From: an uncultured Rhodospirillales bacterium
GTDB lineage: Bacteria > Pseudomonadota > Alphaproteobacteria > Azospirillales > Azospirillaceae
Assembly: GCA_903856295.1 (NCBI GenBank)
Contig: CAIOBP010000194.1
Location: 1-37,083, forward strand
Direction of reading: 5' to 3'
DNA length: 37,083 bases
Shown here: positions 2,497-37,083 of the stretch, one piece after another
Position numbering within the stretch: the stretch's first letter is position 1
How the letters are laid out: each line of letters opens with the position of its first letter
The notes under the pieces: model-generated
The model's input: the letters and a program-made list of their open reading frames with translations, nothing else
Databases searched by the model: none
Told to the model about the DNA's origin: nothing
Translations under genes and position numbers: made by a program

Positions 2497-2522
2497 AGGC
2501 CATCCGCCGCAACAGGTCAGTA

Positions 2523-4303: not shown

Positions 4304-4322
4304 CGGGATCCTGGAGCGGCTG

Positions 4323-5126: not shown

Positions 5127-5141
5127 GCCGGCCTCCCCCAT

Positions 5142-5184
5142 CCGGGGAACAGTTACCCGGGGACCAGTTCCGGGGAACGATCCG
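5142..5184. promoter_or_regulatory. Tandem CCGGGGAnCAGTT repeats in divergent promoter region
   Basis: Three near-identical units start at 5142, 5157 and 5170 (CCGGGGAACAGTTAC, CCGGGGACCAGTTC, CCGGGGAACGA). They lie between the DUF4169 gene (minus) and the AsmA-like gene (plus), where both promoters must be. They may form an operator; this is inference from position and repetition. Further right, GCGCAAG occurs twice (about 5216-5237). Confidence 0.45.
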
Positions 5185-5266
5185 TTGCGTCCCCGATCCC
5201 GACCAACTAGCTTAGCGCAAGCCTGCGCCAGCGCAAGGCTTACTGTGACTGATTCGGATTTTTCCC

Positions 5267-8230: not shown

Positions 8231-8252
8231 TGCCCCACCGAGGAAACCGCCC

Positions 8253-8678: not shown

Positions 8679-8762
8679 GCCGCCATGCCGCGCCGCCATC
8701 TTGATCCGGACGGGCCGGACGTGCACAGTGAAGCGCGACCACCCCTCACGGAGTACACCCGA

Positions 8763-9359: not shown

Positions 9360-9381
9360 AAGCGGAAAACATCCGGGCTCG

Positions 9382-9418
9382 CCATGGCGGCGGGAAATTG
9401 CTAGAATCGCCGCCATGG
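9382..9418 (+). promoter_or_regulatory. Perfect 11-bp inverted repeat covering the start codon, with extended -10
   Basis: CCATGGCGGCG (9382-9392) and CGCCGCCATGG (9408-9418) are exact inverted copies around a 15-base loop. The right arm includes the ATG (9415) of the cobalamin adenosyltransferase gene. The loop ends with TGCTAGAAT, an extended -10-like element whose TAGAAT (9402-9407) lies seven bases before the A of ATG, and no Shine-Dalgarno sequence is present. This fits either a leaderless transcript or, on read-through mRNA, a hairpin hiding the start codon. Confidence 0.55.
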
Positions 9419-9990
9419 TCAAGCTCACACGCATCTACACCCGGGGCGGCGACGGCGGTCAGACCTCGCTCGGCGATGGCCGGCGGGTAGCCAAGCACGA
9501 TCAGCGGGTCGCCGCCTATGGCGCGGTCGATGAAACCAACGCCGTGATCGGCCTGGCCCGCCTGCACACCGCCGCCGCACCCGAGATCGACGCCATGCTC
9601 GGGCGCATCCAGAACGATTTGTTCGATCTCGGCGCCGACCTGTGCACCCCCGCGGAAGACCAGCCGAAACACCCGCCGCTACGGATCGTCCCGGCCCAGG
9701 TCGAGCGGCTCGAACGCGAGATCGACGCCCTCAACGCCGGCCTGCCCGCCCTGAATTCCTTCATCCTGCCCGGCGGCACTCCGACCGGGGCGTGGCTGCA
9801 TCTCGCGCGCACCGTCTCGCGCCGGGCCGAGCGGGAAATCACCCTGCTCGCCGAACGCGAGCCGGTGGCGGCTCCGGCATTGCACTACATCAACCGTCTC
9901 TCGGACCATCTCTTCGTGCTCGGCCGGATCGTCAACGACCAGGGCCGCGCCGATGTGCTGTGGGTTCCCGGCGGCAACCGCCAAGCTTGA
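9415..9990 (+). CDS. Cob(I)alamin adenosyltransferase, PduO type
   Basis: Transfers the adenosyl group of ATP to cob(I)alamin, making adenosylcobalamin in the cytoplasm. The 191-residue length and motifs are typical: TRGGDGGQTSLGDG (ATP-binding loop, residues 8-21), the RVAAYGAVDETNA segment (about 33-45) and the C-terminal INRLSDHLFVLGR motif, whose Arg-x-Ser-Asp is part of the active site. The start at 9415 is the family-typical MxxLTRIYTRGGD. In-frame upstream starts would overlap the Spy-like gene and lack family similarity. MoeB follows after five bases, so the two are cotranslated from one mRNA. See the separate entry for the inverted repeat over the start. Confidence 0.95.
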   Translation: MVKLTRIYTRGGDGGQTSLGDGRRVAKHDQRVAAYGAVDETNAVIGLARLHTAAAPEIDAMLGRIQNDLFDLGADLCTPAEDQPKHPPLRIVPAQVERLEREIDALNAGLPALNSFILPGGTPTGAWLHLARTVSRRAEREITLLAEREPVAAPALHYINRLSDHLFVLGRIVNDQGRADVLWVPGGNRQA

Positions 9991-9995
9991 GCGTC

Positions 9996-10778
9996 ATGGA
10001 TTTCACCGATAGCCAGCTCGAACGCTACGCCCGCCACATCATGCTGCCCGAGGTCGGCGGCACCGGTCAGGAGCGCCTGCTGCGCGCGCGGGTGCTGGTG
10101 GTCGGCGCGGGCGGACTCGGCTCGCCGCTGCTGCTCTATCTGGCCGCCGCCGGGGTCGGCACCTTGGGCGTGGTCGATCCCGATGTCGTCGACCTGTCCA
10201 ACCTGCAACGGCAGGTGATTCACGATGGCGGCTCCCTCGGCCGTCCCAAGGTCGACAGCGCCGCCGAGCGCATCCGGGCGATCAATCCCGAGATCGTGGT
10301 CGAGCGCCATCACACCAAGCTGACCGCCGCCAACGCCGCCGAACTGATCGCCGGCTACGACGTGATCGCCGACGGCACCGACAACTTCACCGCCCGCTTC
10401 CTGATCAACGACACCTGCTTTTTCACCGGAAAAACCCTGGTTTCGGCGGCGATCTTGCGCTTCGAAGGCCAGATTTCGACCTTCAAGCCCCATCTCGGCC
10501 CGGCCCACCCCTGCTATCGCTGCCTGTTTCCCGAGCCGCCGCCGCCCGGACTGGTGCCGAGCTGCGCCGAGGGCGGGGTGTTCGGCGCGCTGGCCGGCGC
10601 CATCGGCTCGTTCCAGGCCATCGAGGTGCTGAAGGAACTGCTGGGCATCGGCGACAGCCTGTCGGGCCACTTGCTGCTGATCGACGGCCTGACCAGCACC
10701 TTCCGCAAAATCAAGGTCCCCCGCGATCCCGACTGCCGCCTGTGCGGCCCGGCACCGGAAGTCCTACTGTCGCAATAG
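9996..10778 (+). CDS. moeB: MoeB/ThiF/HesA-family adenylyltransferase
   Basis: Adenylates the C-terminal glycine of a ubiquitin-like sulfur carrier (MoaD or ThiS) for molybdopterin or thiamine synthesis. The 260-residue protein has the Rossmann ATP loop VVGAGGLGSPLLLYL (residues 32-46), DPDVVDLSNLQRQVIH (62-77), DGTDNF (about 129-134), two zinc CxxC pairs (CYRC; CRLC) and a PSCAEGGVFG segment with the conserved Cys. Starts at ATG 9996 (MDFTDSQLERYARHIMLPE), the normal family start. The zinc-binding, rhodanese-free form is the bacterial MoeB type; whether its partner is MoaD, ThiS or another carrier cannot be told from the window. A hairpin follows its stop. Confidence 0.92.
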   Translation: MDFTDSQLERYARHIMLPEVGGTGQERLLRARVLVVGAGGLGSPLLLYLAAAGVGTLGVVDPDVVDLSNLQRQVIHDGGSLGRPKVDSAAERIRAINPEIVVERHHTKLTAANAAELIAGYDVIADGTDNFTARFLINDTCFFTGKTLVSAAILRFEGQISTFKPHLGPAHPCYRCLFPEPPPPGLVPSCAEGGVFGALAGAIGSFQAIEVLKELLGIGDSLSGHLLLIDGLTSTFRKIKVPRDPDCRLCGPAPEVLLSQ

Positions 10779-10779
10779 G

Positions 10780-10800
10780 GGAATCGCGACCTCCGATTCC
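10780..10800 (+). terminator. Hairpin after moeB
   Basis: GGAATCG and CGATTCC form a perfect 7-bp stem with a 7-base loop, starting one base after the moeB stop. There is no T-run after it, so it is a possible attenuating or Rho-assisted 3' structure rather than a classical terminator. Confidence 0.45.
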
Positions 10801-10894
10801 TGTGACAATTCGCAACAGCCTGATTTCCCGAACCCGCCGAATATGGTAGCGGTTGTGACGGTGGCTGGGGCGGGCGAACCAAAGGGGAGTGGTC

Positions 10895-13408
10895 ATGGCG
10901 GAGGTCGGTTTCTTCGAGCGCTACAAGGTCGGGGCCCGGATCAATTCCGGTTTCGCGATCGTCCTGGTGCTGCTGGTCGCCGTCGCCGTGGTCGCGGTGA
11001 TCAACCTGCGCAGCGGCGCCAGCGGCCTGAAGGATTACGCCCGAGTCTCGAGCAACACGGTCAAGGTGGTCGGCATCACCGCCGAGGTCGCCGAAATGCG
11101 CCGCCGGGTCGTGCTGTTCGCCGAAAGCGGCGATGAAAAGCCGCTCAGCCGGGCGCGGGAGCTGATCGGCGGCATCGGCACCGGGCTGGAGGCTCTGATC
11201 GCCGACACCGTCGCCGCCGACCGCCGCCAGATGCTGACCGAAATGCTCGAGTCGATCCATCTCTACGGCAATACCCTGGAACAAGCGGTGACGCTGCGCG
11301 CCCAGCGCGAAACCATGTTCACCGAGACCATGGCCGCCGTTGCCGGCACGCTGAGCGCCAGCATCGCCGAGGTGACCAAACAAGCGATGGCCGAGGGCGA
11401 TTACCCGCTGGCCGCCCGGGCCGGCATCGCCGAAAACGCCTTCACCATGGCCCGCTACTGGGCCGCCCGCTATACCGCCAAGGACGAGCAGCGCTTCGCC
11501 GACTCCGCGGCCGATCAGATCGCGCTGTTCCGCAAGAACATTGCCGATCTGCTGCCCCAGGTGACCAAGCCCCGGCTGATCGACAAGCTCGAGACCGCCG
11601 CCACCGCCGCCGCCGAATACCAGCAGCGCTTCGGCGAGTCCCAGACCCTCAACCGCAGCTTCGACGATCTGGTCTACAAGACCCTGGCCGGCATCGGCGT
11701 CGACTTCGCCGACAAGGCCGCCAAGCTGCGGGACGCCCAGCTCAAACGCAACACCGACCTGATGGCCGCCACCGACCAGGGCATGAGCACCGCCGTCACG
11801 GTGACCATCGGGCTGTCGCTGGCGGCGCTGCTGCTCGGTCTGCTGTGTGCGCGCCTGATTTCCTCCAGCATCATCCGCCCGGTCGAAGGCGTGCGCAAGG
11901 TGATGGTCGACCTCGCCGAGGGCCATCTCGAGGTTGTCGTGCCCTACACCGGCGGTCAGGACGAACTGGCCGAGATGGCGCGGGCGGTTCAGACCTTCAA
12001 GGAGATGTCGACCGGCGCGGTGCGCGCCGGCTGCGCCCTGGATCAGGTCACCGCCAACGTCATGATGGCCAACACCGAGGGGCTGATCACCTACGTCAAC
12101 CCGGCGCTGATCCGGATGTTCCGCACCGCCGAGAGCGATCTGCGCCAGGTGATGCCCAGTTTCGACGCCGGGACGCTGGTCGGACGGAATTACGACGAGT
12201 TCCATCGCCGGCCCGAGCATCAGCGCCAGCTGCTGGGCAGCCTGACCACCACCCATCGGGGGCAGGCCGCGGCCGGACGCCGGACCTTCCAGATCATCGC
12301 CAATCCGGTGGTCAGCCGACTCGGGGTGCGGCTGGGCACCGTGATCGAATGGCGCGATCTCACCGACGAACTGCTGATCGAAGAGGAGATCAAGGGCATC
12401 GTCGAGGGCGCCCTGCATGGCGACCTGTCCCGCCGGATCGCCCTCGAGGGCAAGAGCGGCTTCTTCCGCGCGATCAGCGAGGGCATCAACGGCATCGCCG
12501 GCACGGTCTCCGACGTCTCCGAGGAGCTGGCCACCTCCCTCGACGCCCTGGCCGGCGGCGATCTCAGCCAGCGCATCGACAAGACCTACGAAGGCGTGTT
12601 CGGCCGGCTCAGGAACGACTACAACGCCACCGCCGACAAGCTGGCCGAAGTGGTCGGGCGGATCACCGAGGCCACCCAGACCATCAGCTCGGCCGCCGCC
12701 GAAATCTCGACCGGCAGCATCGATCTCGCCGAGCGCACCGAACAGCAGGCGTCGAACCTGGAAGAGACCGCGGCGGCGATGGAACAGCTCGGCGCCTCGA
12801 CCCGGCGCAACGCCGAAAACGCCAGCCAAGCCAACCGCAAGGCCGCCGAGGCCAAGACCGCCGCCGAACATGGCGGCACGCTCGCCGGCTCGGCGGTGGA
12901 TTCGATCAAGCGCATCGAACAGGCCAGCCGCAAAATCACCGAGATCATCGGGGTGATCGACGAAATCGCCTTCCAGACCAACCTGCTGGCCCTGAACGCG
13001 GCGGTGGAAGCGGCGCGGGCCGGCGACGCCGGCAAGGGCTTCGCGGTGGTGGCGCAAGAGGTGCGGGTGCTGGCCCAGCGCTCGGCTCAGGCGAGCAAGG
13101 AAATCAAGACCCTGATCACCGCCAGCGACGCCCAGGTCCGCGATGGTGTCGAGATGGTTCAGAAGGCGGGCGGGGCGCTCGGCGGCATTGTCGACAGCGT
13201 CAACCGGGTGGCGCAGATGATCGTGGAAATGGCCGCCGCCAGCTCCGAGCAGGCCACGGCGATCGGTGAAATCAACTCGGCGGTGGCCATGCTCGACGAA
13301 ACCACCCAGAAAAACGCCGCGCTGGTCGAGGAAACCACCGCCGCCGCCCAGTCGATGGCCGGCCAATCCCGCGATCTCAAGGACCTGATGGCCTTCTTCA
13401 TCACCTGA
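10895..13408 (+). CDS. Methyl-accepting chemotaxis protein with HAMP and PAS
   Basis: An 837-residue chemoreceptor. Order: TM1 (about 19-38, SGFAIVLVLLVAVAVVAVIN), a helical periplasmic sensor (about 40-300), TM2 (about 302-322, IGLSLAALLLGLLCARLIS), HAMP (323-370), a cytoplasmic PAS domain (about 380-490; NTEGLITYVNPALIRMF, LVGRNYDEFH), a second HAMP-like stretch (ALAGGDLSQRIDKTYEG) and the MCP signalling coil to the end. The conserved hairpin tip DEIAFQTNLLALNAAVEAAR lies near residue 690. No C-terminal CheR-tethering pentapeptide is present (it ends MAFFIT). ATG 10895 is used because GGGGAG lies five bases before it; GTG 10889 is also in frame. It presumably signals through CheA/CheW encoded elsewhere; the PAS could sense redox or energy state, but no cofactor residue is identified. 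Ends in repeat copy B. Confidence 0.95.
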   Translation: MAEVGFFERYKVGARINSGFAIVLVLLVAVAVVAVINLRSGASGLKDYARVSSNTVKVVGITAEVAEMRRRVVLFAESGDEKPLSRARELIGGIGTGLEALIADTVAADRRQMLTEMLESIHLYGNTLEQAVTLRAQRETMFTETMAAVAGTLSASIAEVTKQAMAEGDYPLAARAGIAENAFTMARYWAARYTAKDEQRFADSAADQIALFRKNIADLLPQVTKPRLIDKLETAATAAAEYQQRFGESQTLNRSFDDLVYKTLAGIGVDFADKAAKLRDAQLKRNTDLMAATDQGMSTAVTVTIGLSLAALLLGLLCARLISSSIIRPVEGVRKVMVDLAEGHLEVVVPYTGGQDELAEMARAVQTFKEMSTGAVRAGCALDQVTANVMMANTEGLITYVNPALIRMFRTAESDLRQVMPSFDAGTLVGRNYDEFHRRPEHQRQLLGSLTTTHRGQAAAGRRTFQIIANPVVSRLGVRLGTVIEWRDLTDELLIEEEIKGIVEGALHGDLSRRIALEGKSGFFRAISEGINGIAGTVSDVSEELATSLDALAGGDLSQRIDKTYEGVFGRLRNDYNATADKLAEVVGRITEATQTISSAAAEISTGSIDLAERTEQQASNLEETAAAMEQLGASTRRNAENASQANRKAAEAKTAAEHGGTLAGSAVDSIKRIEQASRKITEIIGVIDEIAFQTNLLALNAAVEAARAGDAGKGFAVVAQEVRVLAQRSAQASKEIKTLITASDAQVRDGVEMVQKAGGALGGIVDSVNRVAQMIVEMAAASSEQATAIGEINSAVAMLDETTQKNAALVEETTAAAQSMAGQSRDLKDLMAFFIT

Positions 13409-13417
13409 GACCGTCCC

Positions 13418-13486
13418 GGTTTTCCAAAGGCCCACGGCCTTTGGCAGGGTCAAGGGGTGGCAGGGTCAAGGGGCGGCGCCCCCTTG
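13418..13486 (+). repeat. Dispersed palindromic repeat, copy B
   Basis: Ten bases after the chemoreceptor stop. CCAAAGGCC/GGCCTTTGG stem at 13424-13444, preceded by the family edge GGTTTTCC, then CAAGGGGC/GCCCCCTTG at 13467-13485. Between them GGCAGGGTCAAGGGG occurs twice (13443 and 13459), an internal duplication not seen in other copies. It lies between convergent genes, so may end both transcripts. Confidence 0.75.
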
Positions 13487-13520
13487 CCTTCCCCTTTGCG
13501 CCTTCACCCAGCGCCACCCA

Positions 13521-15824
13521 TCACGGCGAAAAGCGCAGGCGCTCGGACGGAAAGTGCAAAGTTACCGTCGTCCCCGTGTTCGCGCCCTGGCGGCTCTTGA
13601 TCGTCAGCCGGCCGCCATGGAGTTCGACCAAACTGCGGGTGAGGTACAGGCCGATGCCGGTCCCGGTGTGCCGGCGGTTCATCGCGGTGTCGACCTGAAC
13701 GAACGGCTGCGCCAGCCCGGCGATCCGGTCGGCGGGAATGCCACAGCCCGTGTCAACGACCTCCAGCCGCAACCCCGCGCTGTCCCAATGGGCGCCCAGG
13801 GTGATCCGCCCGCCCGCCGGCGTGAATTTGACGGCGTTGGACAGCAGATTGAGCAGCATCTGGCGCACCGCCCGGCGGTCGGCTCGCAAATGCGGGGCAA
13901 TGCTGGCCGAACGGGCGATCACCGTGCCTTTTTCGGCGGCGCGCGGCCCGACCAACCGCACCGCGTCCTCGAAGGCGTCGTTGACCACCAGCCACTCGTC
14001 GCTCAGTTCGAAGTGGCCGGCCTCGATCTTGGCCAGATCCAGCACTTCGTTGATCAGGTCGAGCAGATGGCGGCCGCTGCTGAAGATCGCCTCGGCATAT
14101 TCGCGATAGCGCGCATTGCCCATGACGCCCAGCACCTCACTGGCCATCATCTCGGAAAACCCGATGATGGCGTTGAGCGGGGTGCGCAACTCGTGGCTCA
14201 TGTTGGCCAGGAACTGGGATTTGGACTGGTTGGCCCGCTCGGCGGCTTCCTTGGCCTGAATCAGCGCCTGCTGATCGAGCTTGCGGGCGGTGATGTCCTG
14301 GCAAACGCCGAAGCGGCCGATCTCGACCCCGTCCTCGTCGCATTCGCGCTGGCTCTCGACCCAGAGCACCCGCTCCTCGCCGCTGGAGCGAATGATGCGG
14401 AACTCGCCCTCCTGGACCGAGGTCCGCCGGCCGCGCGCGGTGAGCAAACGGCGCACCTGCTCGCGGTCTTCGGGATGGATGCAGGCGAAGATCGTGGCCG
14501 GAGACAGGCGGAACGCCTCGGGCTCGACCCCGAACAACCGGAACATCTCGTCGGACCAGAAGACCAGACGGGTCCGGTGATCGTAGCGCCAGCCGCCGAG
14601 TTGGGCGATGCGCTGGGCCGCCGACAGTTCGGCCTCGCGTTCGCGCAACTTCTGCTCGCGCCCGTGACGCTCGGTGATGTCTTCGTAAATCGTGAGGCCG
14701 GCGCCCTCGGCGGCGTCAAGCTCGCGCACCTCGATGCGCCGGCCGCCCGAAATATCCATCTCGAAGCGGTTCGGACGGCGCTGGTGGCGATCCTGCCGCT
14801 CGGCGATCCAGCCTTCGATCTCCCGCGCGCGCTGAAGACCGGGGGCCTGGCCATGGGAAGCATACAGCCCGCGTTCGGCACAGGCGCGCACCAGGTCGGC
14901 GAACGGCCGGCCGGGGACGATCAGATCCGCGATGCCGGGAAACATCGTGCGCATGCGCGCATTGGCCAGCACGATGCGGTCCCGGGCATCGCACAGCAAA
15001 AACCCCTCCTGAAGCGCCCCGAGCGCATCGTGAAGCCGGGCGCTGGTCTGCTCGAGGCTGGGGCGGTTCATCTCATGATCGCCATCATGGAACAGCACGG
15101 CGACGAAGCCCTCGGGCTCAGGCGCCTGCCGTTCCCGCACCAGCAACAGCAGGGGAAAGCTCGTGCCATCCTTGCGCCGGCCGAACAGCTTGCGCCGCCG
15201 CTCGCCCGCCGCCGGCCACGCGCGGTCGCGGGCCTCGGCCATGTAGCGGTCATGCTGGGCAGCGTGGGCCTCCGGCATCAGCACCGTGACGTTGGCCCCC
15301 ATCACCTCTTCCGCCCGATAGCCGAAGATGCGCCCGGCTCCGGCGTCGAAGCTGTCGATCAGCCCCCGGCGATCGCTGCCGACCACGCCGTCGGCGGCGG
15401 TCGCCAGCACCGCGAAGCCGGGGGCGACACCGATGAACCCCGAAACGGCGGTGATCGGCGCACGCTCGTCGACCACCGTGACCGTGCTGACCGTGAAGCG
15501 ACCGCCGCTCATGCCCGACATCACCGAAGCGCTGGCCACCACCGAGCGGCCCGGCTCGCCCGGGTAGGGAAAGCGCAACTCGGCCCGGTCGCCCAGCGCG
15601 CCCCGGAGCAGGTCGGCATAGCCCGAAGAAAACAGGCCGTCGCCGCCCTCAAGCAGAACCGCCACCGGCCGCCCGGTCAACTCGGCCTCGGAGCGACCGT
15701 GAAGACGGCTGAACGCGCCGTTGACCCGCAGCATCGAGCCCTCGGCGTCAACAACGCACAACCCCGGCTCGGCGTTCACGGCCACAGGCAAGCATCCCGC
15801 AGGAGAAAATAATTCATCAGGCAC
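13521..15824 (-). CDS. Multi-PAS sensor histidine kinase
   Basis: A 767-residue soluble hybrid-free kinase. PAS domains run from the N-terminus: PAS1 (about 10-120, [20 protein letters not shown]), PAS2 of FixL-like form (about 125-250, [23 protein letters not shown]), a PAS_7-like domain (about 265-380, [20 protein letters not shown]) and a PAS_3-like domain (about 400-520, [20 protein letters not shown]). The HisKA phosphoacceptor is in [21 protein letters not shown] (His near 544), followed by HATPase motifs [18 protein letters not shown] and [13 protein letters not shown]. No receiver domain, no membrane segment. GTG 15824 is chosen because GGAAGG lies before it; the open frame upstream has no domain. 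The cognate regulator is not adjacent, so this is an orphan kinase. Convergent with the chemoreceptor gene, which may be functionally unrelated. Confidence 0.92.
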
Positions 15825-15961
15825 GGAACACCTTCCGGTCCATCCAGCCGTAATGATCTTAGAAGCGGGTACTGTAGGAACGGTTAACGGCCTCGGCTTA
15901 TTGCCGCTTGCCTGAAATATTTTCGCCCCCCGGGGCAAAACCCGGGAAGAGCAAGAGCAAG

Positions 15962-16012
15962 CCCAGGGCGTTGCCCTGGACCCACCAAAGGCCGCGGGCC
16001 TTTGGAAACCGG
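15962..16012 (-). repeat. Dispersed palindromic repeat, copy C
   Basis: Short form of the family just 3' of the Rid gene (minus). CCAGGGC/GCCCTGG with loop GTT at 15963-15979 and CCAAAGGCC/GGCCTTTGG at 15985-16005, ending GGAAACCGG towards the Rid stop. A separate CCCGGGG/CCCGGG structure lies at about 15926-15946. Confidence 0.75.
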
Positions 16013-16027
16013 AACCAGAGCGGGGCG

Positions 16028-16411
16028 CTAACGCCGCTTGCGCACGGTGACCTCGATTTCGATCTTGATCCGCGGATCGACCATCTGCACGCCGATCGTG
16101 GTGTTGGCCGGACGGCTGATGCCGAGGAAGCGGCCGAAGACCGGCGCCACCCGCTCGAAATCGGCGACATCGGCCAAATAGGCATGGACCCTGACCGTCT
16201 CGTCGAGGCTGGCGCCGGCCTGGGCCAATGCCGCCCGGATATTGAGAAACGCCTGCTCGGTCTGCGCCACCACATCCTCGGAGATGCTGCCGGCGGCATA
16301 ATCGAAGCCGGTGGTGCCGGACACGAACACCCAGCGGCCATCGACCACCGCCCGTGAATAGCCCATGACCTTTTCGAAGTCGGAACCGGAAGAAATCAGT
16401 TTGCGCGCCAT
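16028..16411 (-). CDS. Rid (YjgF/YER057c) family protein lacking the catalytic Arg
   Basis: A 127-residue protein of the Rid superfamily, trimeric enzymes that clear reactive enamine/imine intermediates. Family features: SRAVVDGRWVFVSGTTGFD, QTEQAFLNIRAALAQAGASLDETVRVHAYLADVADF and KIEIEVTV at the end. RidA proper has an Arg in PARS (Arg105 in E. coli) that binds the substrate carboxylate; here the aligned segment reads PANTTIGV, so the Arg is Asn. This places it among Rid subgroups for which imine deaminase activity is not expected. It is therefore not named ridA. Start ATG 16411 follows GAGAGG. It precedes the orphan kinase on the same strand but is separated by repeat C. Confidence 0.88.
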   Translation of the reverse strand: MARKLISSGSDFEKVMGYSRAVVDGRWVFVSGTTGFDYAAGSISEDVVAQTEQAFLNIRAALAQAGASLDETVRVHAYLADVADFERVAPVFGRFLGISRPANTTIGVQMVDPRIKIEIEVTVRKRR

Positions 16412-16523
16412 GATGCAGCCTCTCCTCACGCTGTGGGCAAATCGGAGTGCGAGCTATTGCCGGAGCCGCCGCGCCAAGTCCATCAAATTCGCCGCGGCGG
16501 CGCGACACGCCCTGCCGTCCCAC

Positions 16524-16587
16524 GACTCACGCGAGTCATACCCATTGGTATGCCGCAAGGCCGAAATTGCCGAGCGGAATACCGCTC
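16524..16587. promoter_or_regulatory. Three short inverted repeats, each with a 4-base loop
   Basis: GACTC-ACGC-GAGTC (16524-16537), CATACC-CATT-GGTATG (16537-16552) and GAGCGG-AATA-CCGCTC (16572-16587) are all perfect and nearly contiguous, in the region between sbcC (3' end) and the Rid gene (5' end). ACGG-CTCGT-CCGT (16619-16631) is a fourth small stem. Possible operator cluster for the Rid gene, or a small structured RNA; unknown. Confidence 0.45.
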
Positions 16588-16636
16588 TATCAAAAGGATA
16601 CGCGACTCTGATCGCCAGACGGCTCGTCCGTACACA

Positions 16637-16676
16637 GTGAGTCAAAACCGGGCTTTTTGTGAGTCCGAGGTGAGTC
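16637..16676 (+). promoter_or_regulatory. Helically phased GTGAGTC repeats
   Basis: GTGAGTC occurs at 16637, 16659 and 16670 (spacings 22 and 11 bp, whole helical turns) and once inverted as GACTCAC at 16524. Same-face spacing suggests a protein-binding array upstream of the Rid gene and just 3' of sbcC. The binding protein is unknown. Confidence 0.4.
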
Positions 16677-16685
16677 ACGGCTGGC

Positions 16686-19600
16686 TCACGCCCGGCGCAC
16701 GGTCTCGACGCGGCTGCGCCCGCCGCCCTCGGCGATCACCCGCACCTGGATGCCGATGCGCTCGATCATCGCCGGCACATGGCTGACCACCCCGACCGAC
16801 CGGCCGCCGGCCTGGAGCGCTTCCAGGCACGACAGCGCGACATCCAGGCTGTCGGGGTCGAGCGCGCCGAAGCCCTCGTCGATGAACAGGGTGCCGATGC
16901 CGGCACCGCCCCCGGCCATCGCCGACAGCCCGAGGGCAAGCGCCAGGGAGATCAGGAAGGTTTCACCGCCCGAGAGACTGTGCACCGAACGCACCTCGTC
17001 GCCCATGTCCTGATCGGCGACCTGGATTTCCAGGTCGGACCCGGCCGCCCGTTCGAGGCGGTACCGGCGGGCGAGGTCGGCCAACTGCGCGTTGGCGTGG
17101 CCGAGGACTTGATCCAGACTCAGGCCCTGGGCGAATCTGCGGAACTTATCGCCGCTGGCCGAGCCGATCACCTGATCAAGCCCGCCCCACAACTCGCAGA
17201 CCTGCCGCTGCGCCTCGATCTCCGCGACCATCCCGGCCAGCCCCGTACGCGCCTGATCATCCTGACGGATGCGTACACCAAGAGCGTACACCAGCTCACG
17301 CGCCGTCTTGAGTGCCGAGTCCGCCGCTGCCAGCGCCATCCCGGCTTCGGCGGCATCGCCCGTCGGCGCCTCCGGAACGGCCTGATGGCGCGTGAGCAGC
17401 CGCTGCCGCTCCGCCAGGGTCGCCGCCGCCGTGTCGAGGGCGCGATCAAGGGCCGCCAGCCGCGCCCCGGTGGCCTCCAGCCAGGCCTGATCATGGCGCA
17501 GCAGGTGACGAACGCTCTCCTCCTCCTGTCCGGCCGCCGCCAGTGCCGCCGCGAAAGCCGCCGCGGCCTCATCCGCCGCCGCCCGCCGCCGCGCCGCATC
17601 GTCAAGCGCCGAGTCGCGCTGCTGTACCGCCCGCGCCAGCGCCAGACCGGCACCATGATGCCCCTCCCGGGCCTCGGCCTGCGCCCGCCCGGCCTCGCGC
17701 CGCGCCGCCATCGCCTCCTGCCGCACCGCCGCCGCCGCCCGCCCGCCGAGCACACCGGCCCGCTCGGCGCCGCGCTGACGCCGCTGCTCCCCCAGGTCCT
17801 GCGCGCCCGCCACGGCGTGCGCTTGCGTCGTCGTCGCCGCCTCGACCCGAGCCAGCAGCCCCTTGCGATCGGCCCCGAGCCCGTCGCGGCGCCGCTCCGC
17901 CCCGGCGAGCGCCTGCTGATCCGCGAGCAGGGCCGCCACCGCCGCGGCCAGTTCGCGCCGGAAGCGCCCGGCATCGGCGGCCCAACCGCCGCGCCAGTCG
18001 CCCAACCCCGCGAAGGGGGCATCCAGTTCGCTCAACACCCGCGCGAACTCCAAAGCGGCGCCGGCCGCCGCCACCGCCGCGTCCGCCGCGGCCAGACGGC
18101 ACCGATGGGCCTCGGCCTCGCGCTCCTGCCCGGTAATCCCGGCCAACTCGGCCTCGATTTCAGCCGACCGCGCCGCCAGCACCGCCGCGACGCCCGCCCC
18201 GGCCGGACTGTCGGGCACCTGCGGACCGTCCGCAGCCCGCCAGTCTTCGCCCAGACCGACCAGCGCCGCCTCGGCCGCCGCGCAACGCTGTTCGGCCAGT
18301 TCGGCCTGACGCCGCGCCGCCGCCGCTGCCGAACGATGGCCGCCGAGCGCCTCGCTCAGCGCCCGGAGTTCGGTGCGCACCTGATCGACCCGGCCCTGCT
18401 GGCCGGCGAGCAGATCATCAAAAACCGCGCGCCGCCGCCCGGCCCAGGGGTGCTCCGCCGCCCCGCACACCAGACAGGGTTCCCCGGCCGCCAGTCCGGC
18501 CCGCAGGGACTCGACCTCGCCGCTGCGGGCGAGGTGCAGACGATGCAAGGCCGCCTCGGCCTCGGCAAACCCCGCCTGGGCCAGCGCCAACGCCGACTCG
18601 GCCGCCGCCGCCGCGGCGAGGTCAGCGGCCGACTGGTCGCGCTGCCGCTCCGCCTCGGCCCGCGCCTGCAACCGGTCGGCGACCGAACGCGCCGCCGCGT
18701 CTGCCAACGCGCCCAGTGTACGCACACGGTCGCGGCGCCGCTCCGCCGCCGCGCGCGCCGCGCCGAGCTGGGCCGACGCCATGACCGGCCGACCGGACAA
18801 CTCTGAGAAAATACCTTTCTTGCCAATAAGATGGCTCTCGGCATCCGCGACAGACCGGTCAAAGTCAACACGCGTCAAGGCGACCGGTTGCTCATCCCCA
18901 ACCCGACCGGCCAGACGCTTTCGACTGTCGACGAGAGTCGCCAGCGCCGCCCCGGCGCGGGCCAACGTACTCTGCCAGCGCGGCCACTCCGCGGCGACCG
19001 GAGCCACGGCCGTACGTGTCGTCAGCGCCTGCTGCCGGCGAGCAATCTCGGCGGTCAGCGCGCCAACTTCGCGCTCGAGCGCCGCCAACGCCGCCCGTTC
19101 GCTCTCGGCCTGCGCCACCGCCCGATCACGTCCGGCCTCAGCGGCACGCACCTCCACCTCCAGACGCGCAAGCTCGGTGTCGAGCAGCAGCGCCCGTTCA
19201 AGGTGCGGCTCCAGGCTCAGCCACGCCGCCTCGGCGGCTTCCTGATGCCGTTCGGCCGTCGCCAGCCGCTCGCCCGCGCTTTCGTGCCGGGTGTGGGCGG
19301 TCGCCAGCGCCGCCTCGGCGCTTTGGGCCTTGGCCGCCGCCTCCACAGCCTCCCGCCGGCTGCGCTCGCACTGCTCCAGAGCCGGGCGCAGGGACTGGAC
19401 CCGGCGCGCCGCCTCGAATTCCCGGCGCTCGCCCTCCCCCGCCTGCCGCGCCGCCAGCGCCGCCCCATGCTCCGTACCCGCCGCCTCCAGATCCCGGCTG
19501 AGCTCGCCCAGCCGACGGTGCCAGTCGCATGCCCGCCCGGCCGCCGCCGCCGCCGCTTCGGCACCGCGCACGGCATCCCCGGCCGCCGCCGCCTCGACCT

Positions 19601-30939: not shown

Positions 30940-31682
30940 GCCGCCGCTCCCCGGTGGCAGCGGCCGGCATGCTCGTCCCAGGCCTCGGACATGGCGCGGG
31001 CGCGGGCAAGATTGGCGGGGCTGAGCACCTCGGCCGCCGCCCCCCAAGCCACCGGCTCGCGCGCCAGCAGCAGCGCCTCGGGAAAATGGGCGCGCACCTG
31101 ATCGAAATCGTGGGACACCACCATCACCGTCCGGCCCTCGCCGTGCCAGTGGCAGACCAGACGCAACAGATCGACGGTCGTGCGGTCGTCGATGGCGGAA
31201 AAAGGCTCGTCGAGCAAAATCAACCGGGCGTCCTGAACCAGCATGCGCGCGAACAGCACACGCTGAAACTGCCCAACCGACAAGCTGGCGATCGCGCGCC
31301 GCTCGAAATCGCCCAGCCCGACCGACTCCAGCGCCGCCCGCCCGCGCGCCAGCAACGGCGCCGTCACCGCCCCGAACGTGCCGATGGTCCGCCAATGGCC
31401 GAGCAGCACGGTATCGAGCACGCTGATCGGAAAGCCGCGGTCGATCTCCGCCTGCTGGGGCAGATAGGCGACTTCGGCCGGCTTCAGCCCGACCAGCTCG
31501 ACCCGGCCTTCGAGCGGCCGCGCCAGCCCCATGATGCCCTTGAGCAGCGTGCTCTTGCCGGCGCCGTTCGGCCCGACCACCGCGGTCAGCGAGCCGGTGC
31601 GCACCGCCCCCGACAGGTGATGCACCGCCGGGTGACGCTCATAACCGAAGGTGACGCCGTGCAGACGGATGATGTCGGCCAT
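30936..31682 (-). CDS. Zn/Mn-type metal ABC transporter ATPase
   Basis: A 248-residue ABC ATPase that powers the permease beside it, facing the cytoplasm. Walker A GPNGAGKST (about 38-46), Q-loop in AYLPQQAEIDRGFPISV, signature, Walker B ARLILLDEPFSAIDD and the H-loop MVVSHD are all present. The signature reads LSVGQFQRV instead of LSGGQ, a Gly-to-Val change at the third position. The first gene half resembles ZnuC/MntB-type ATPases. ATG 31682 follows AGGA. Its stop overlaps the permease start; four bases separate it from the small membrane protein upstream. Confidence 0.93.
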   Translation of the reverse strand: MADIIRLHGVTFGYERHPAVHHLSGAVRTGSLTAVVGPNGAGKSTLLKGIMGLARPLEGRVELVGLKPAEVAYLPQQAEIDRGFPISVLDTVLLGHWRTIGTFGAVTAPLLARGRAALESVGLGDFERRAIASLSVGQFQRVLFARMLVQDARLILLDEPFSAIDDRTTVDLLRLVCHWHGEGRTVMVVSHDFDQVRAHFPEALLLAREPVAWGAAAEVLSPANLARARAMSEAWDEHAGRCHRGAAA

Positions 31683-33468: not shown

Positions 33469-33543
33469 GGGCGATTAGCTCAGCGGGAGAGCACACCCTT
33501 CACACGGGTGGGGTCATAGGTTCAATCCCTATATCGCCCACCA
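33469..33543 (+). tRNA. tRNA-Val(CAC), CCA encoded
   Basis: 75 bases with a 7-bp acceptor (GGGCGAT/ATCGCCC), 4-bp D stem (GCTC/GAGC), 5-bp anticodon stem (CACCC/GGGTG) with loop TTCACAC (anticodon CAC at 33501-33503, valine), TTCAATC T-loop on an ATAGG/CCTAT stem, and encoded CCA. Bases 33460-33467 (GAGAAAGA) and 33544-33551 (TCTTTCTC) are complementary and extend the acceptor beyond CCA. Confidence 0.95.
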
Positions 33544-33647
33544 TCTTTCTCAAGGGGTTAGCGGAAATCAGCCGTACCGACAACCAGCCGGGGAAGCCTG
33601 GGGGAAGCCAGAGACGGTAAGTCGGAGCCAGATCAGGCAACGATGCG

Positions 33648-34895
33648 CTATCCCGTCGCACCCATCCGATACTCGCCCGACTTCCGGTCCCGTTGCAGCT
33701 TCGCGGGGTGAGCGGCGGTCACGAGATGGACGTTGAACCGGCGAGCGAAGCGCTTCAGGTCGCGGATCGCCTGCCCGGTGTACTCGGTCACGGTCATGCC
33801 GGGGGCGCGCTGGTGTTCTAACTCGTTCCACGGATCGATGCTGATCACGGTGGCGTTGTGGCGGATCACGGCGGCGGCGGCGGCGGTTTCGAACACCCAT
33901 TCGAGGGTGGCGTCGGTGTCGTCGTCGGCCACCAGGAACACGAAATGCTGATCAATCCAATCGTCGGCCGCTGCGATTTCCTCGAGGCTCCACAGGGCGG
34001 GCGGTTTGCCGATCTTCCACCAGCGCAGCGCCCGGCGGTGATCAACCTGCGCCCGTTGCTCGGGACTGAAGAACGCGGTGACGCTGCCGTGCCTGTGAGC
34101 CAGCCGACAAGCGGTTTCGTTGATCCAGGTCGATTTCCCGTGGTTCGGAATGCCGGTCACCACCTGAAAGTCACCCCGGCGAATACGGATGTGCTGGTCA
34201 AGGGCAAGGTGGCCGAGCGGCAAGGCGTCCGGTTCGGTGAGGGGCGGCAATTGCGACATGGTGAACAGGCCACGGACGGCCAGCCAGTCGGCCCCCTCGA
34301 TCACGGCGCGCACCGCCGCGCCCCCGTACTTGACCAGCACGTCGTTGAGGTCTTTGCAGCCGGCCGGATAACGGACATAGCGGCACTTCGCCCGCCCGAG
34401 CCGTAGGGCCAGATCGTTCATGAGGTTGACGCCCGGTCCGTCCGCGTCGGTCGCCAGGATGATCGTTGGCACCGAGCGGAGCGCGTCCAGGGCGTCGGCC
34501 ACGTAGCTATATTTCGCGCTGTCGGGTTCTGCGCCGATGGCTTGTTGCGGGGCACCGTCGGGCACCGAGACGACGCGAGCGAAGCCGGCTTGCAGGGCGG
34601 TGATCGCGTCAAGCTCGCCCTCGGTGATGATCAGCGGTTCGGTGGCAAGGGTGGTGTCGGTGATCGCGTCGGCGTTCCAGAAACATTTCACCCCGTCCTT
34701 GTCCTGATAAAATCGCTTCTCCCCGGCGATGGTCCGGAATTTCCGGTTCACGACGGCACCGCTCCGAAAGCTGGGAATAACGATCCAGTCACCACCACGT
34801 TCTTGATGGCTGCCGATGCCCAGCCGGGTGATCAGTTCCACGTCCAGACCGCGCGCTTCGAGGATCGCGGCGTGTTTCTCGGTCAATCCGGGCAT
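33648..34895 (-). CDS. Phage-type Toprim-helicase (primase-helicase), C-terminally truncated
   Basis: A 415-residue T7 gp4-like protein without its own zinc ribbon. After MPGLTEKHAAILEARGLDVELITRLG come Toprim motifs TEGELDA (about 120-126) and ILATDADGPG (about 165-174), then a RecA/DnaB-type helicase part with Walker A GIPNHGKSTW (about 272-281) and SIDPWNELEH. It stops in the LVTAAHPAKLQRDRKSGEYR segment, which in relatives is followed by the last conserved helicase strand and arginine finger, so about 60-80 residues are missing beside the tRNA. ATG 34895 has AAAGGA eight bases before it. The zinc ribbon is in the overlapping upstream gene. Priming plus unwinding of the element is the expected task; activity after the truncation is doubtful. 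Confidence 0.85.
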   Translation of the reverse strand: MPGLTEKHAAILEARGLDVELITRLGIGSHQERGGDWIVIPSFRSGAVVNRKFRTIAGEKRFYQDKDGVKCFWNADAITDTTLATEPLIITEGELDAITALQAGFARVVSVPDGAPQQAIGAEPDSAKYSYVADALDALRSVPTIILATDADGPGVNLMNDLALRLGRAKCRYVRYPAGCKDLNDVLVKYGGAAVRAVIEGADWLAVRGLFTMSQLPPLTEPDALPLGHLALDQHIRIRRGDFQVVTGIPNHGKSTWINETACRLAHRHGSVTAFFSPEQRAQVDHRRALRWWKIGKPPALWSLEEIAAADDWIDQHFVFLVADDDTDATLEWVFETAAAAAVIRHNATVISIDPWNELEHQRAPGMTVTEYTGQAIRDLKRFARRFNVHLVTAAHPAKLQRDRKSGEYRMGATG

Positions 34896-35121
34896 CGACA
34901 AATCCTTTGAATTCGCAGTGGTGACAGAGGAAGACGGCAGTTCCGATCTCGATCCGGCCGCGACGGGTCTCGCTGGGTCCGATGGCGACCGAGAGGCAGG
35001 GCGATTTTCGATTGTGCTTCCGGGTGTGGCTGCACTTCGGGCACAGGCCGTAACGGCTGCCCGGCTCGTAGCTCCGCAGGCGGATGCCATGCTTGATCAG
35101 TTCGTCGGTGACGCTGGTCAT
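34789..35121 (-). CDS. Phage-primase zinc-ribbon protein, overlapping the helicase gene
   Basis: A 110-residue frame with a CPKC...CHHC zinc ribbon (LCPKCSHTRKHNRKSPCLSV; AVFLCHHCEFKGFV) exactly like the N-terminal zinc-binding domain of phage primase-helicases (Pfam Prim_Zn_Ribbon group). It begins at ATG 35121, two bases after the preceding gene's stop. Its conserved part ends at about residue 75; the rest (RSARSGRGTDHPAGHRQPSRTWW) reads over the helicase gene in another frame and looks non-functional. The helicase frame is +1 relative to it. This is either an authentic pair of overlapping genes, a programmed frameshift, or an ancestral single gene broken by a frameshift. Confidence 0.75.
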   Translation of the reverse strand: MTSVTDELIKHGIRLRSYEPGSRYGLCPKCSHTRKHNRKSPCLSVAIGPSETRRGRIEIGTAVFLCHHCEFKGFVDARIDRETRRDPRSARSGRGTDHPAGHRQPSRTWW

Positions 35122-35123
35122 GG

Positions 35124-35489
35124 TCAGAACCCCAGCGGCGTGATGCCGACACGTTCGGCGAGCGACTGAGGCTTGTCGGCGGCGGCGGACGGTGTTGCGT
35201 GGTCCGCGTCTGCCCAACGTTCGCCATTCAGCCACGTGGCGGGGTGGGGGATGAATTTCGGATCGCTGCCAACGGATTTGCCGGCAAAGCGTTCGGCGGC
35301 AGAGAGCAGGGCGGCGGCATCGACTTTCTTGCGAGCGGCACGGTAGGCTTTCAGGGCAGCGCCTCGGCCGACGTGGCGTGGATAGGCGGCATACCAAGCT
35401 GGGAAGTCGGCTTCCGTCAGGCAGATCACCTTCCCCTGAAGTGCGCAGCTTTCCTCCCGCCGGCTTTTAGTCGAGGGCGCCGGTTCCAT
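35124..35489 (-). CDS. Phage replication protein, DnaT/O-like C-terminal domain
   Basis: A 121-residue frame with the recognisable phage replication C-terminal domain: FPAWYAAYPRHVGRGAALKAYRAARK, then SDPKFIPHPATWLNGERW, the 'HPATWL' ending of DnaT/lambda-O-like replisome-organiser proteins that recruit the helicase. ATG 35489 has AGGA seven bases before it. The frame is open further upstream through the PPIE-coding 12-bp repeats, so it may originally have been fused to the gene at 35546-36127. Stop is two bases before the zinc-ribbon start. Confidence 0.75.
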   Translation of the reverse strand: MEPAPSTKSRREESCALQGKVICLTEADFPAWYAAYPRHVGRGAALKAYRAARKKVDAAALLSAAERFAGKSVGSDPKFIPHPATWLNGERWADADHATPSAAADKPQSLAERVGITPLGF

Positions 35490-35505
35490 GGCGGTTCCTA
35501 CTGCT

Positions 35506-35553
35506 GGTTCTATTGGTGGTTCTATTGGTGGTTCTATTGGTGGTTCTATTGGT
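35506..35553 (+). repeat. Four exact 12-bp tandem repeats (GGTTCTATTGGT)
   Basis: Four identical units at 35506, 35518, 35530 and 35542. In the frame of the replication C-terminal gene they read PPIE; in the frame of the upstream gene they bring the TAG stop (35546-35548). Copy-number change would not alter the frame. Confidence 0.9.
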
Positions 35554-36127
35554 GGATAGGCGGAACGTGGTTCCCCAGGGGGCGGAACGTCGTTCCGGGG
35601 GCTGGGGAATTTGGTTCCGGGGACTGGGGAACGTCGTTCCGGGCGGAATTCAGTTCCGGGCGGAATGTGGTTCCGGGCGAAACCGGCGCGGAAAGAGTGG
35701 CGAGGATCGCGAGATCGATCCGGTACTCGCGGGCTTTGTGCCGCGCCATGTCGGCTTCGGCGACCATGACCAACATCCACGCAGCCAGCGGCCGGGCATC
35801 ACCTTCGGCAAGCCATCGGATCATGGTCCTATCACAGCAAAGCCCAAGCGTGTCTCCTGTGCGCTCTTCCCGGTGCAGCGCCTCCTTCGCCCAATCATCA
35901 TTGACCGACCACGGCGCATCAGCAGGCCAAGGGTCGCCAGCCTTCCGGTCGTGCCACATCAAGACGCCGCTATCCGGCATGCGTTCGAGCGCGGCTTTTC
36001 CCGCAGGGTCTCCGCCCGAAATAGCTTGACCGAGCCACAAAATCCGGGCTGCGCGTTCCGCATTTTTCTTTTCTCGGTTGGGATCAATAACTTCAACGGG
36101 CTCAGGAAAATCTGCCTCTTCGGTCAT
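35546..36127 (-). CDS. Element protein of unknown function upstream of the replication genes
   Basis: Not recognised; 193 residues from ATG 36127, eleven bases after the integrase stop. The N-terminal ~140 residues look globular (NREKKNAERAARILWLGQAISGG, WHDRKAGDPWPADAPWSV, DRTMIRWLAEGDARPLAAWMLVMVAEADMARHKAREYRID). The last ~45 residues are a Pro/Asn/Ser-rich linker (GTTFRPELNSARNDVPQ; GTTFRPLGNHVPP) coded by the iteron array, ending abruptly in the 12-bp repeats. If fused to the next frame by a net one- or two-base change it would be an approximately 334-residue initiator with a linker, as in lambda O. Could be the origin-binding domain. Confidence 0.7.
   Translation of the reverse strand: MTEEADFPEPVEVIDPNREKKNAERAARILWLGQAISGGDPAGKAALERMPDSGVLMWHDRKAGDPWPADAPWSVNDDWAKEALHREERTGDTLGLCCDRTMIRWLAEGDARPLAAWMLVMVAEADMARHKAREYRIDLAILATLSAPVSPGTTFRPELNSARNDVPQSPEPNSPAPGTTFRPLGNHVPPIHQ
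35562..35674. repeat. Six palindromic iterons GGAAY-N3-GTTCC, spacing 22/22/22/17/17
   Basis: Units at 35562 (GGAACGTGGTTCC), 35584 (GGAACGTCGTTCC), 35606 (GGAATTTGGTTCC), 35628 (GGAACGTCGTTCC), 35645 (GGAATTCAGTTCC) and 35662 (GGAATGTGGTTCC). Spacings of 22 and 17 are not multiples of 3, so the repeat is not the consequence of a repeated peptide. It lies within the 3' part of the upstream gene, directly before the replication C-terminal gene. Candidate replication origin. Confidence 0.75.
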
Positions 36128-36138
36128 GAAAGCTCCTC

Positions 36139-36942
36139 TCAAGAAATTTGGCGCGCTATTGGCAGCGCAATTACTTCGGCCGCTTCGGCTCCGCACATCA
36201 ACGCACCGATGTGCCGCGACACTCGGTCGGCTGCCCCAATCAAGGCGGCATCGGGACGGCGGATATAGTGGCGTTCGGTTACTCCCCGCCGGGAATGACC
36301 GAGCAATTCGCCTATCGTGGCGTCTGAATATCCTTCGGTCGCCGCGATGGTGGCGAACGTCCTGCGAAGATCATGGCTTCGCGCATCGGACAGACCGGCG
36401 GCATCGAAGATCGCGGCTATCGGTTTTTTGAGATCGGCGGGAGCGGTGCCGTCGCGGTTCGGAAAAACCCAGTCCTCGTGGCGACGAGGCATGGACTTGA
36501 GAATATCCAGAACAGACCTGCCAATCGGGCGGGTGCTCCGGCCCGTCTTCGTCGCCTGCAAGCGCAGGCACGAACCGAGTTCATCAATCTCCGACCACCG
36601 CAACCCGACGGCCTCTTCCCGTCTCAGCCCAGTGAATGCGATAAGACGCACGGCGGCAACCGGGGCCGGGTGCGTCGCCTCCATCGCCTTCAGGACGGCT
36701 CCGAGTTTGCGAAGCTCATCAGACGTGAGCACCCGGTCTTTCGCTCCGCTGGCGGCTTTATCAACCCCGTGCGCAGGATTTTCGCCCGACGTGTAGCCGC
36801 GTCGTTCTGCCCACTTCCAGATTGCCCCCAGCAGCCCGACGGCCCTGGCTGCCGTGCCGGGTCCGCCAGTCACAACGGCTTTACCCCTCGCCTTGGTCTT
36901 GACGACAACGGCTGTCCGCCCGGCGGCTATCGCGTCCACCAT
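36139..36942 (-). CDS. Tyrosine recombinase/integrase, N-terminal arm-binding domain missing
   Basis: A 267-residue catalytic and core-binding part of a tRNA-site integrase. Core-binding: GLLGAIWKWAERRGYTSGENPAHGV (about 37-61). Catalytic Arg in FTGLRREEAVGLRWSEI, Lys in ATKTGRSTRPI, HDLRRTFAT for the His-x-x-Arg box, GHSRRGVTERHYI for the second His and the nucleophile Tyr. All active-site positions are present. Related proteins have about 80-120 additional N-terminal residues (DUF4102-type arm binding); here a TGA (36964-36966) lies in frame seven codons before ATG 36942, and RQDVQR between them resembles the family, so the domain was lost by a nonsense or deletion change. It may still recombine, or be inactive. 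First gene of the minus-strand element operon. Confidence 0.8.
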   Translation of the reverse strand: MVDAIAAGRTAVVVKTKARGKAVVTGGPGTAARAVGLLGAIWKWAERRGYTSGENPAHGVDKAASGAKDRVLTSDELRKLGAVLKAMEATHPAPVAAVRLIAFTGLRREEAVGLRWSEIDELGSCLRLQATKTGRSTRPIGRSVLDILKSMPRRHEDWVFPNRDGTAPADLKKPIAAIFDAAGLSDARSHDLRRTFATIAATEGYSDATIGELLGHSRRGVTERHYIRRPDAALIGAADRVSRHIGALMCGAEAAEVIALPIARQIS

Positions 36943-37083
36943 CCGTTGAACATCTTGGCGGTGTCAATCAGCGCGCAAAAGTTTCCAGGCAGGCGGGGAA
37001 AACAGCGCGTTTTTTTTCCAGTCCCTCAGGTTGTTTTCTGACGCTGTTTAAAACGGTATGAGTGGTTTCCGGTTTCGAGTATA
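36943..37083. other. A+T-rich flank upstream of the integrase
   Basis: No gene seen. Contains an in-frame stop (36964-36966) that ends the integrase's upstream extension, a run of eight T within GGAAAA...TTTTCC (36997-37019) and no copy of the tRNA-Val 3' end. It probably holds the integrase promoter. Confidence 0.5.

What the first reader, a model, noticed from the sequence alone, without database searches (positions are those of the whole stretch)
33469..37083. Compact integrated element at tRNA-Val(CAC) with both end genes truncated
The order integrase, unknown, replication domain, zinc ribbon, helicase on one strand directly next to a tRNA 3' end is a satellite- or phage-like layout. The integrase has lost its N-terminal domain at the distal end and the helicase its C-terminus at the tRNA end, so attP lies between them in the circular form or deletions occurred at both ends. 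The remaining cargo and attR are outside the window.
Basis: partly seen in the sequence, partly recalled or inferred. Interest (0 to 1): 0.6.

Follow-up and report, generated by a model that had tools for sequence, protein, structure and literature searches.

The report
Decayed mini-prophage or satellite in tRNA-Val
A 4-kb leftover of a phage-like mobile element sits in a valine tRNA gene; both its ends can be found, but its integrase, replication initiator and helicase genes all look broken, so it is most likely an ordinary dead relic.

Summary
tRNA-Val(CAC) at 33469-33543 is followed by an integrase/replication element, and the tRNA 3' end is repeated exactly (60 bp) on contig C221 of the same draft genome. 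The window is a whole contig that stops inside that IS, which splits the integrase; the other half, with an apparent frameshift, lies on C221 beside attR.

The "unknown" and "replication domain" ORFs are largely pieces of one phage replication initiator: most of its winged-helix domain is deleted and its frame changes at two in-gene iteron arrays. A separate zinc-ribbon ORF is normal in relatives. The helicase has lost about 70 C-terminal residues.

So integrase, initiator and helicase are damaged, while both att copies, arm-like repeats and iterons remain. Best reading: a decayed prophage or phage-satellite remnant at a tRNA hot spot; a genus-mate has a different element in the orthologous tRNA. 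The helicase groups with phage helicases, whereas the iterons match a capsid-type satellite-like element of a family-mate, so the parent type stays open. No empty site was found. Ordinary in kind.

The parts
33469..33543 (+). tRNA-Val(CAC), integration target, kept whole
   Evidence: ARAGORN; Rfam RF00005, 64.5 bits; anticodon 33501-33503
33497..33556 (+). attL core: 60-bp exact direct repeat, from the anticodon arm to 13 bp beyond the tRNA; the other copy (attR) is at G000:C221:767-826 (locus L007)
33590..33621 (+). arm-like repeats inside attL: GGGGAAGC at 33590 and 33601, GGTAAG at 33616; GGGGAAGC recurs at C221 618, 629, 639, 737
   Evidence: only 2 copies in the whole window; expectation 0.004 per strand in 144 bp; motif chosen after the fact, and the plain 9-mer test was weak (42 of 2000 shuffles reached the observed value)
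33648..34895 (-). primase (TOPRIM) / DnaB-like helicase, 415 aa from an inner ATG; about 70 C-terminal residues missing
   Evidence: phrog_239 E 4e-56; Toprim_2/Toprim_4 over cut-off; relatives run on past our last aligned residue
34789..35121 (-). zinc-ribbon ORF of the primase, overlapping the helicase ORF
   Evidence: tblastn hits of 30-52% in many helicase loci; separate overlapping ORF also in L075; no PHROG hit of its own
35124..35780 (-). ORF with the C-terminal domain of the replication initiator (domain about residues 120-206)
   Evidence: phrog_270 E 1e-16 and related replication families; no Pfam hit
35489..35555 (.). iteron-like array 1: 5.5 copies of a 12-bp unit TGGTGGTTCTAT
   Evidence: Tandem Repeats Finder
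35562..35674 (.). iteron-like array 2: six near-palindromes GGAAYNNNGTTCC at 35562, 35584, 35606, 35628, 35645, 35662 (spacing 22, 22, 22, 17, 17)
   Evidence: 16 matches with up to 1 mismatch in the window, 12 of them these sites read on both strands; mean 4.0, 0 of 100 shuffles reach 16
35546..35779 (-). part of the fused 'unknown' ORF (about residue 124 on): end of the initiator's winged-helix domain plus iteron-coded linker
   Evidence: matches initiators of 5 family genomes besides our own, query about 123-197; 43% over 72 columns to G060
35780..36148 (-). part of the same ORF (residues 1-123): no relative found; first ATG near 36127
   Evidence: no match to this part
36139..36961 (-). 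integrase C-terminal half (catalytic domain); the other half is on C221, about 141-603, minus strand
   Evidence: PF00589 76 bits; phrog_1; both halves align to the G073 integrase, 39.6% and 36.7%
36953..36961 (.). presumed target-site duplication of the IS, TCTTGGCGG, also at C221 141-149
36962..37083 (.). end of an IS at which the contig stops
   Evidence: same end or the opposite one lies near the ends of nine other contigs

Best explanation
A remnant of an integrative phage or phage satellite. A tyrosine integrase once recombined a circular element with the anticodon-to-3'-end part of tRNA-Val(CAC); the element brought an identical 3' end, so the tRNA stayed whole and the displaced copy marks the far end (shown: both copies; inferred: the recombination). 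After excision the element would have replicated from an origin made of iterons inside its own initiator gene, bound by the initiator, which recruits or works with the TOPRIM/DnaB-like primase-helicase (inferred from homology and layout; the phage lambda O analogy is recalled). It has since decayed: an internal deletion fused another gene's start to the initiator and removed most of the DNA-binding domain, the initiator frame changes at the iterons, the last part of the helicase is gone next to attL, the integrase has an apparent frameshift and then took an IS. It should now be unable to excise or replicate by itself. Whether the parent was a prophage or a satellite is not decided.
For: 60-bp exact direct repeat on C221. 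Integrase halves on the two contigs, in one frame at the shared 9 bp, each next to an IS end. The IS ends recur near nine other contig ends, which explains the break. Winged-helix fragment and iteron linker match initiators of family-mates, and no frame of the element encodes the missing part of that domain. Helicase C-terminus missing against nearly all relatives listed. Complete relatives exist with the same order integrase - initiator with in-gene repeats - primase/helicase between direct repeats (L155). The tRNA is a hot spot: G050 has another integrase at the orthologous site with a 60-bp exact repeat of its own.
Against: The join of the two contigs is inferred, not read; C221's right flank is a sensor-kinase gene, while G050's right flank is another gene, so synteny does not support it. 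Draft-assembly errors could cause the two frame changes. GC does not help: element 0.630, window left part 0.687, but C221 beyond attR 0.618. No empty site was found. The parent type is not fixed by gene content.
Confidence: 0.87

Rival explanations
1. A working minimal satellite: about 4 kb of integrase, origin and helicase is enough, as in PICMIs, and a helper phage does the rest. The two-piece initiator and the short helicase would then be genuine.
For: Both att copies, arm-like repeats and iterons are kept. Vibrio PICMI115 is only 6,110 bp with int, alpA and prim as core (passages of PMC10803314), and EcCIMP1 lacks identifiable terminase genes (passages of PMC11773190).
Against: Integrase split by an IS and frameshifted; winged-helix domain mostly absent; helicase without its last part; no AlpA-like gene among the ORFs scanned and no int-alpA RNA.
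Confidence: 0.04
2. The element is much larger and what is seen is only its edge; cargo and a further attR lie elsewhere.
For: The assembly is in 255 contigs and the body of the IS is not in it, so DNA between the two contigs besides the IS cannot be excluded.
Against: The integrase halves meet at one shared 9-bp sequence with IS ends on both sides, which leaves room for an IS-sized insert but asks for nothing else; C221 carries attR directly beyond the integrase start.
Confidence: 0.05
3. Chance or assembly artefact: C221's tRNA fragment belongs to some other, unrelated integration event.
For: Contigs are joined here only by sequence logic; G050 shows that other elements use the same tRNA; flanks are not syntenic.
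Against: The repeat is 60 of 60 identical, it reaches 13 bp past the tRNA, and C221 carries just the integrase half that the window lacks, with the matching IS duplication.
Confidence: 0.04

Closest known systems
Temperate prophage remnants (cryptic prophages) in tRNA genes
   Same: tRNA-nested att repeat, tyrosine integrase, early replication genes, progressive loss of genes, IS insertion; helicase groups with phage helicases such as L075 (terminase, portal) and L039 (CI-like repressor, portal).
   Different: No structural, lysis or repressor gene is left, so prophage origin cannot be shown.
PICI (phage-inducible chromosomal islands), Gram-negative type
   Same: Integrase plus replication module with two iteron sets; PMC6092414 describes two iteron sets flanking an AT-rich stretch (passages). 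A family-mate, G016, has a PICI-like element with related initiator and helicase, TerS and an int-alpA RNA.
   Different: No AlpA, TerS or interference gene seen; here the two arrays lie side by side, the 12-bp array itself being the AT-richer part (0.55 AT at 35500); helicase lies in another clade than G016's.
cfPICI-like (capsid-type) elements of the same bacterial family
   Same: G038's element has eight near-copies of the same iteron GGAACNNNGTTCC with 17- and 22-bp steps in a winged-helix initiator.
   Different: Capsid, adaptor and terminase genes present there, absent here.
PICMI (minimalist islands of Vibrionaceae)
   Same: Very small, integration plus replication genes only.
   Different: PICMI integrate next to fis and need int, alpA and a DUF3987/DUF5906 primase; here tRNA-Val and a TOPRIM/DnaB-like enzyme.

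Membership tests
Integrative element with tyrosine integrase at a tRNA | direct repeat of the target 3' end at the far side | tested here: met
Integrative element with tyrosine integrase at a tRNA | one intact integrase gene | tested here: not met
   split by an IS and apparently frameshifted
Temperate prophage | structural, lysis and terminase genes | tested here: not met
   none among the window and C221 element ORFs scanned
PICI | integrase with AlpA/Stl-type regulator | tested here: not met
   no regulator hit; no int-alpA RNA
PICI | replication gene(s) with two iteron sets | tested here: inconclusive
   two arrays present but side by side, and the initiator is broken
PICI | no structural genes; TerS or cos for packaging | tested here: inconclusive
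   no structural genes and no TerS; cos not tested
PICI | induction and packaging by a helper phage | not testable with these tools
   needs an experiment
cfPICI | own capsid and terminase genes, no tail genes | tested here: not met
   no such genes here
PICMI | int, alpA, prim next to fis | tested here: not met
   tRNA-Val site, no AlpA, other primase type
Phage O-type replication initiator with in-gene origin | winged-helix N-terminus, iterons inside the gene, C-terminal partner domain in one ORF | tested here: not met
   C-terminal domain and iterons present, winged helix mostly deleted, frame broken

The most novel reading that the evidence does not exclude
A cis-only passenger: every gene for moving and copying that was tested is broken, yet each cis-acting site looked for (att core twice, arm-like repeats on both sides, two iteron arrays) is still there. 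The element may be a non-autonomous, MITE-like derivative of a satellite or phage, kept because a related integrase and initiator arriving in the same cell can still excise and amplify it.
Probability: 0.05. Interest if true: 0.5.

Novelty: new member of a known kind. Interest (0 to 1): 0.22.

Why it matters
By itself it is one more decayed tRNA element, useful as a worked case: a contig break inside an IS made one gene look truncated, and a deletion made half an initiator look like an unknown gene. The relatives are worth more: in the same bacterial family there are compact elements (PICI-like in G016, capsid-type in G038) that share an initiator with iterons inside its gene, in hosts for which I found no such satellites in the papers searched.

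Tried and rejected
Rejected: integrase loss at an element end (its other half is on C221). Rejected: zinc ribbon/helicase split as a mutation (usual in relatives). Rejected: 'unknown' as a new gene as a whole (its last third is initiator sequence); its first 123 residues stay unexplained: no match in viral contigs (3 pattern stretches, none confirmed), phages or plasmids. Rejected: the IS as an IstB-type element already in the assembly: the two best IstB contigs, C57 and C55, do not match its ends beyond 10-14 bp chance hits; the family of the IS stays undetermined and its body is missing from the assembly. Tried without result: an empty tRNA-Val site in 4 genus-mates; right-flank synteny (beyond our own genome the best was 69% in G049, and no tRNA-Val match in the stretch fetched there); att repeats of G060 and G073 (nothing above 15 bp), of G010, G026 and G029 (nothing above 14 bp); a close relative of the integrase at tRNA-Val (26 of 82 genomes have an integrase match at E<=1e-25, our own included, best 42%; of the 24 integrase and satellite loci given to ARAGORN none holds a tRNA-Val). 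The shared 9-mer test between the two att arms was weak (42 of 2000 shuffles reach it). A helper prophage: one TerL family (phrog_9) gave only an 83-aa scrap in the own genome; other families were not tested. In one search the zinc ribbon was given in a wrong frame; it was repeated in the right frame (no PHROG hit). In one search five of ten G038 ORFs had no hit, partly because my own gene caller took the wrong strand (seen).

Full report
What the window is. The window is the whole of contig C194 (37,083 bp) of a draft genome of 4.02 Mb in 255 contigs. ARAGORN and Rfam find tRNA-Val(CAC) at 33469-33543. To its right, all on the minus strand, lie a helicase ORF, a zinc-ribbon ORF, a replication domain, an 'unknown' ORF and an integrase that runs to the contig end.

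Both ends of the element. A search of the own genome with the tRNA region finds a second, exact copy of window 33497-33556 at C221:767-826; the repeat is 60 bp and reaches from the anticodon arm to 13 bp past the tRNA. On C221 (4,566 bp) the sequence inside this copy carries, on the minus strand, an arm-type DNA-binding domain (PF13356) and the N-terminal half of a tyrosine integrase; beyond the copy follows a large sensor-kinase-like gene (the name is my reading of the sequence). The window half and the C221 half of the integrase align to one integrase of a family-mate (G073), 39.6% and 36.7% identical, and overlap exactly in the 9 bp TCTTGGCGG that both contigs share, in the same frame. Beyond these 9 bp both contigs run into IS ends. 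One end recurs near the ends of contigs C228, C184, C51 and C149, the other near those of C37, C223, C244 and C92, so a repeated IS broke the assembly here. C228 and C223 share 8 bp at the same place (read by eye), which fits a target duplication. The IS family is not determined and its body is not in the assembly. Without the IS the element measures 4,082 bp. The start of the integrase on C221 lies in another frame than the rest, near C221 547: an apparent frameshift, or a draft error.

Att arms. GGGGAAGC occurs twice in the whole window, both inside attL (33590, 33601), and four times in 206 bp inside attR. The expectation is 0.004 and 0.006 per strand. The motif was picked after looking, and a plain test of shared 9-mers was weak (42 of 2000 shuffles reach the observed number). 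I take them as likely integrase arm sites, not as proven ones.

The initiator. ORF 35124-35780 matches replication-initiation families over its C-terminal part (phrog_270 E 1e-16). The 'unknown' ORF has no relative in viral contigs, phages or plasmids at the limits used. In 82 genomes of the order (all of one family) 6 have a match at E<=0.001, our own included, and the matches of the other five cover only about residues 123-197. Those five genomes encode a winged-helix initiator whose wing end and following linker align with our residues 124 on (43% over 72 columns to G060). No frame of our element encodes the rest of that winged helix. So residues 1-123 belong to something else and are fused to an initiator remnant; the initiator's C-terminal domain goes on in another frame after the repeats.

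The iterons. Six near-palindromes GGAAYNNNGTTCC lie at 35562-35674 with steps of 22, 22, 22, 17 and 17 bp (0 of 100 shuffles of the window reach the 16 matches counted), next to 5.5 copies of a 12-bp unit at 35489-35555. The initiator genes of G016 (L155) and of Magnetospirillum fulvum (L044) carry different repeats at the corresponding place, and that of G038 carries eight near-copies of our palindrome with 17- and 22-bp steps. Iterons inside the initiator gene are the layout of phage lambda O (recalled). I infer an origin here.

The helicase. The 415-residue product matches primase/helicases (phrog_239 E 4e-56; Toprim_2 and Toprim_4 over the Pfam cut-off). In one search nearly all relatives listed run on for 57 to 97 residues past the aligned part; exceptions are L055 (0, cut by its contig), L067 (24) and L071 (165). 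In the alignment our sequence leaves the others right after 'SGEY' and ends 7 residues later. The missing part follows the conserved HP-K motif of the ATPase core; that it holds the last ATPase motifs is recalled. The zinc ribbon is a separate overlapping ORF in relatives such as L075 and fused in L155 and L044.

Which parent? A tree of 107 helicases puts ours in a 19-row group (support 94) with L075, L039, L043 and 15 viral contigs, apart from the group of G016, G010, L044, G026 and G029 (support 100). Of that 19-row group I annotated two: L075 has terminase, portal and head genes, L039 a CI-like repressor and a portal. On the other side, the iterons and the initiator linker resemble those of G038, whose element lies between 32-bp repeats (the right one at the 3' end of tRNA-Ser) and has integrase, major head protein, head-tail adaptor, TerS and TerL, with no tail hit among ten ORFs scanned. 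So the element is a mosaic, and prophage or satellite origin cannot be decided.

Site use by others. Genus-mate G050 has the orthologous pseudouridine-synthase gene/tRNA-Val pair (80% identical) followed by other DNA, and a 60-bp exact repeat on its contig C231 beside a different integrase. The other three genus-mates have their rluC-like gene and the tRNA-Val on separate contigs in their drafts; G048 also has an integrase next to a tRNA-Val. No empty site was found.

Papers. Passages of PMC6092414, PMC10803314, PMC11773190, PMC11389934 and PMC11476347 were seen; no paper was read whole. A search for Azospirillum with phage-inducible chromosomal island found no paper in the held library, one for SatelliteFinder, cfPICI and Alphaproteobacteria none, and one for phage satellite, PICI and Alphaproteobacteria two, on other subjects by their listing.

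Verdict. An IS-split, deleted and frame-broken remnant of a phage or phage satellite, about 4.1 kb, in tRNA-Val(CAC), with both ends identified. Shown: repeats, integrase halves, iteron arrays, missing domains. Inferred: the contig join, integration history, origin function, loss of mobility.

Noticed in passing
L155 (G016:C1:2222500-2242400), 4160-14852: PICI-like element between 39-bp repeats (10,654 bp apart): integrase, int-alpA RNA (RF02996, 37.6 bits against a cut-off of 35.8), initiator with iterons, fused primase-helicase, TerS (phrog_2538), an Abi/AbiU-like gene; no structural PHROG hit among the 15 ORFs inside that were scanned.
   Followed up: partly
L198 (G038:C54:270000-289900), 2878-18962: Capsid-type, cfPICI-like element of 16 kb ending at tRNA-Ser(GCT): integrase, winged-helix initiator with eight GGAACNNNGTTCC-like iterons, major head protein, adaptor, TerS, TerL; not all ORFs scanned.
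   Followed up: partly
L196 (G060:C4) and L197 (G073:C60): Integrase, initiator, DnaB-like helicase, portal, protease/major head protein and adaptor (TerL found in L197 only, among the ORFs scanned); no att repeat found.
   Followed up: partly
L156 (G010:C2:613000-632900), 4819-15307: tRNA-Ser, integrase, AlpA/Xis-like gene, initiator in two ORFs, primase-helicase and TerS, followed by transposase genes: a relative of the G016 element disturbed by insertion.
   Followed up: partly
L178 / L179 (G050:C208, C231): A different integrated element in the orthologous tRNA-Val with other arm-like repeats (CTGTAAGTGCA); its content lies on contigs not identified.
   Followed up: no
L044 (Magnetospirillum fulvum), 65-12102: Integrase, initiator with repeats, helicase, head morphogenesis, TerL, portal, major head protein and a Proteo-phage-1 RNA; contig too short to tell phage from capsid-type satellite.
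   Followed up: no
window 31454-31531: ARAGORN calls a tRNA-SeC here that no Rfam family supports; it overlaps ABC-transporter-like ORFs and is probably false.
   Followed up: partly
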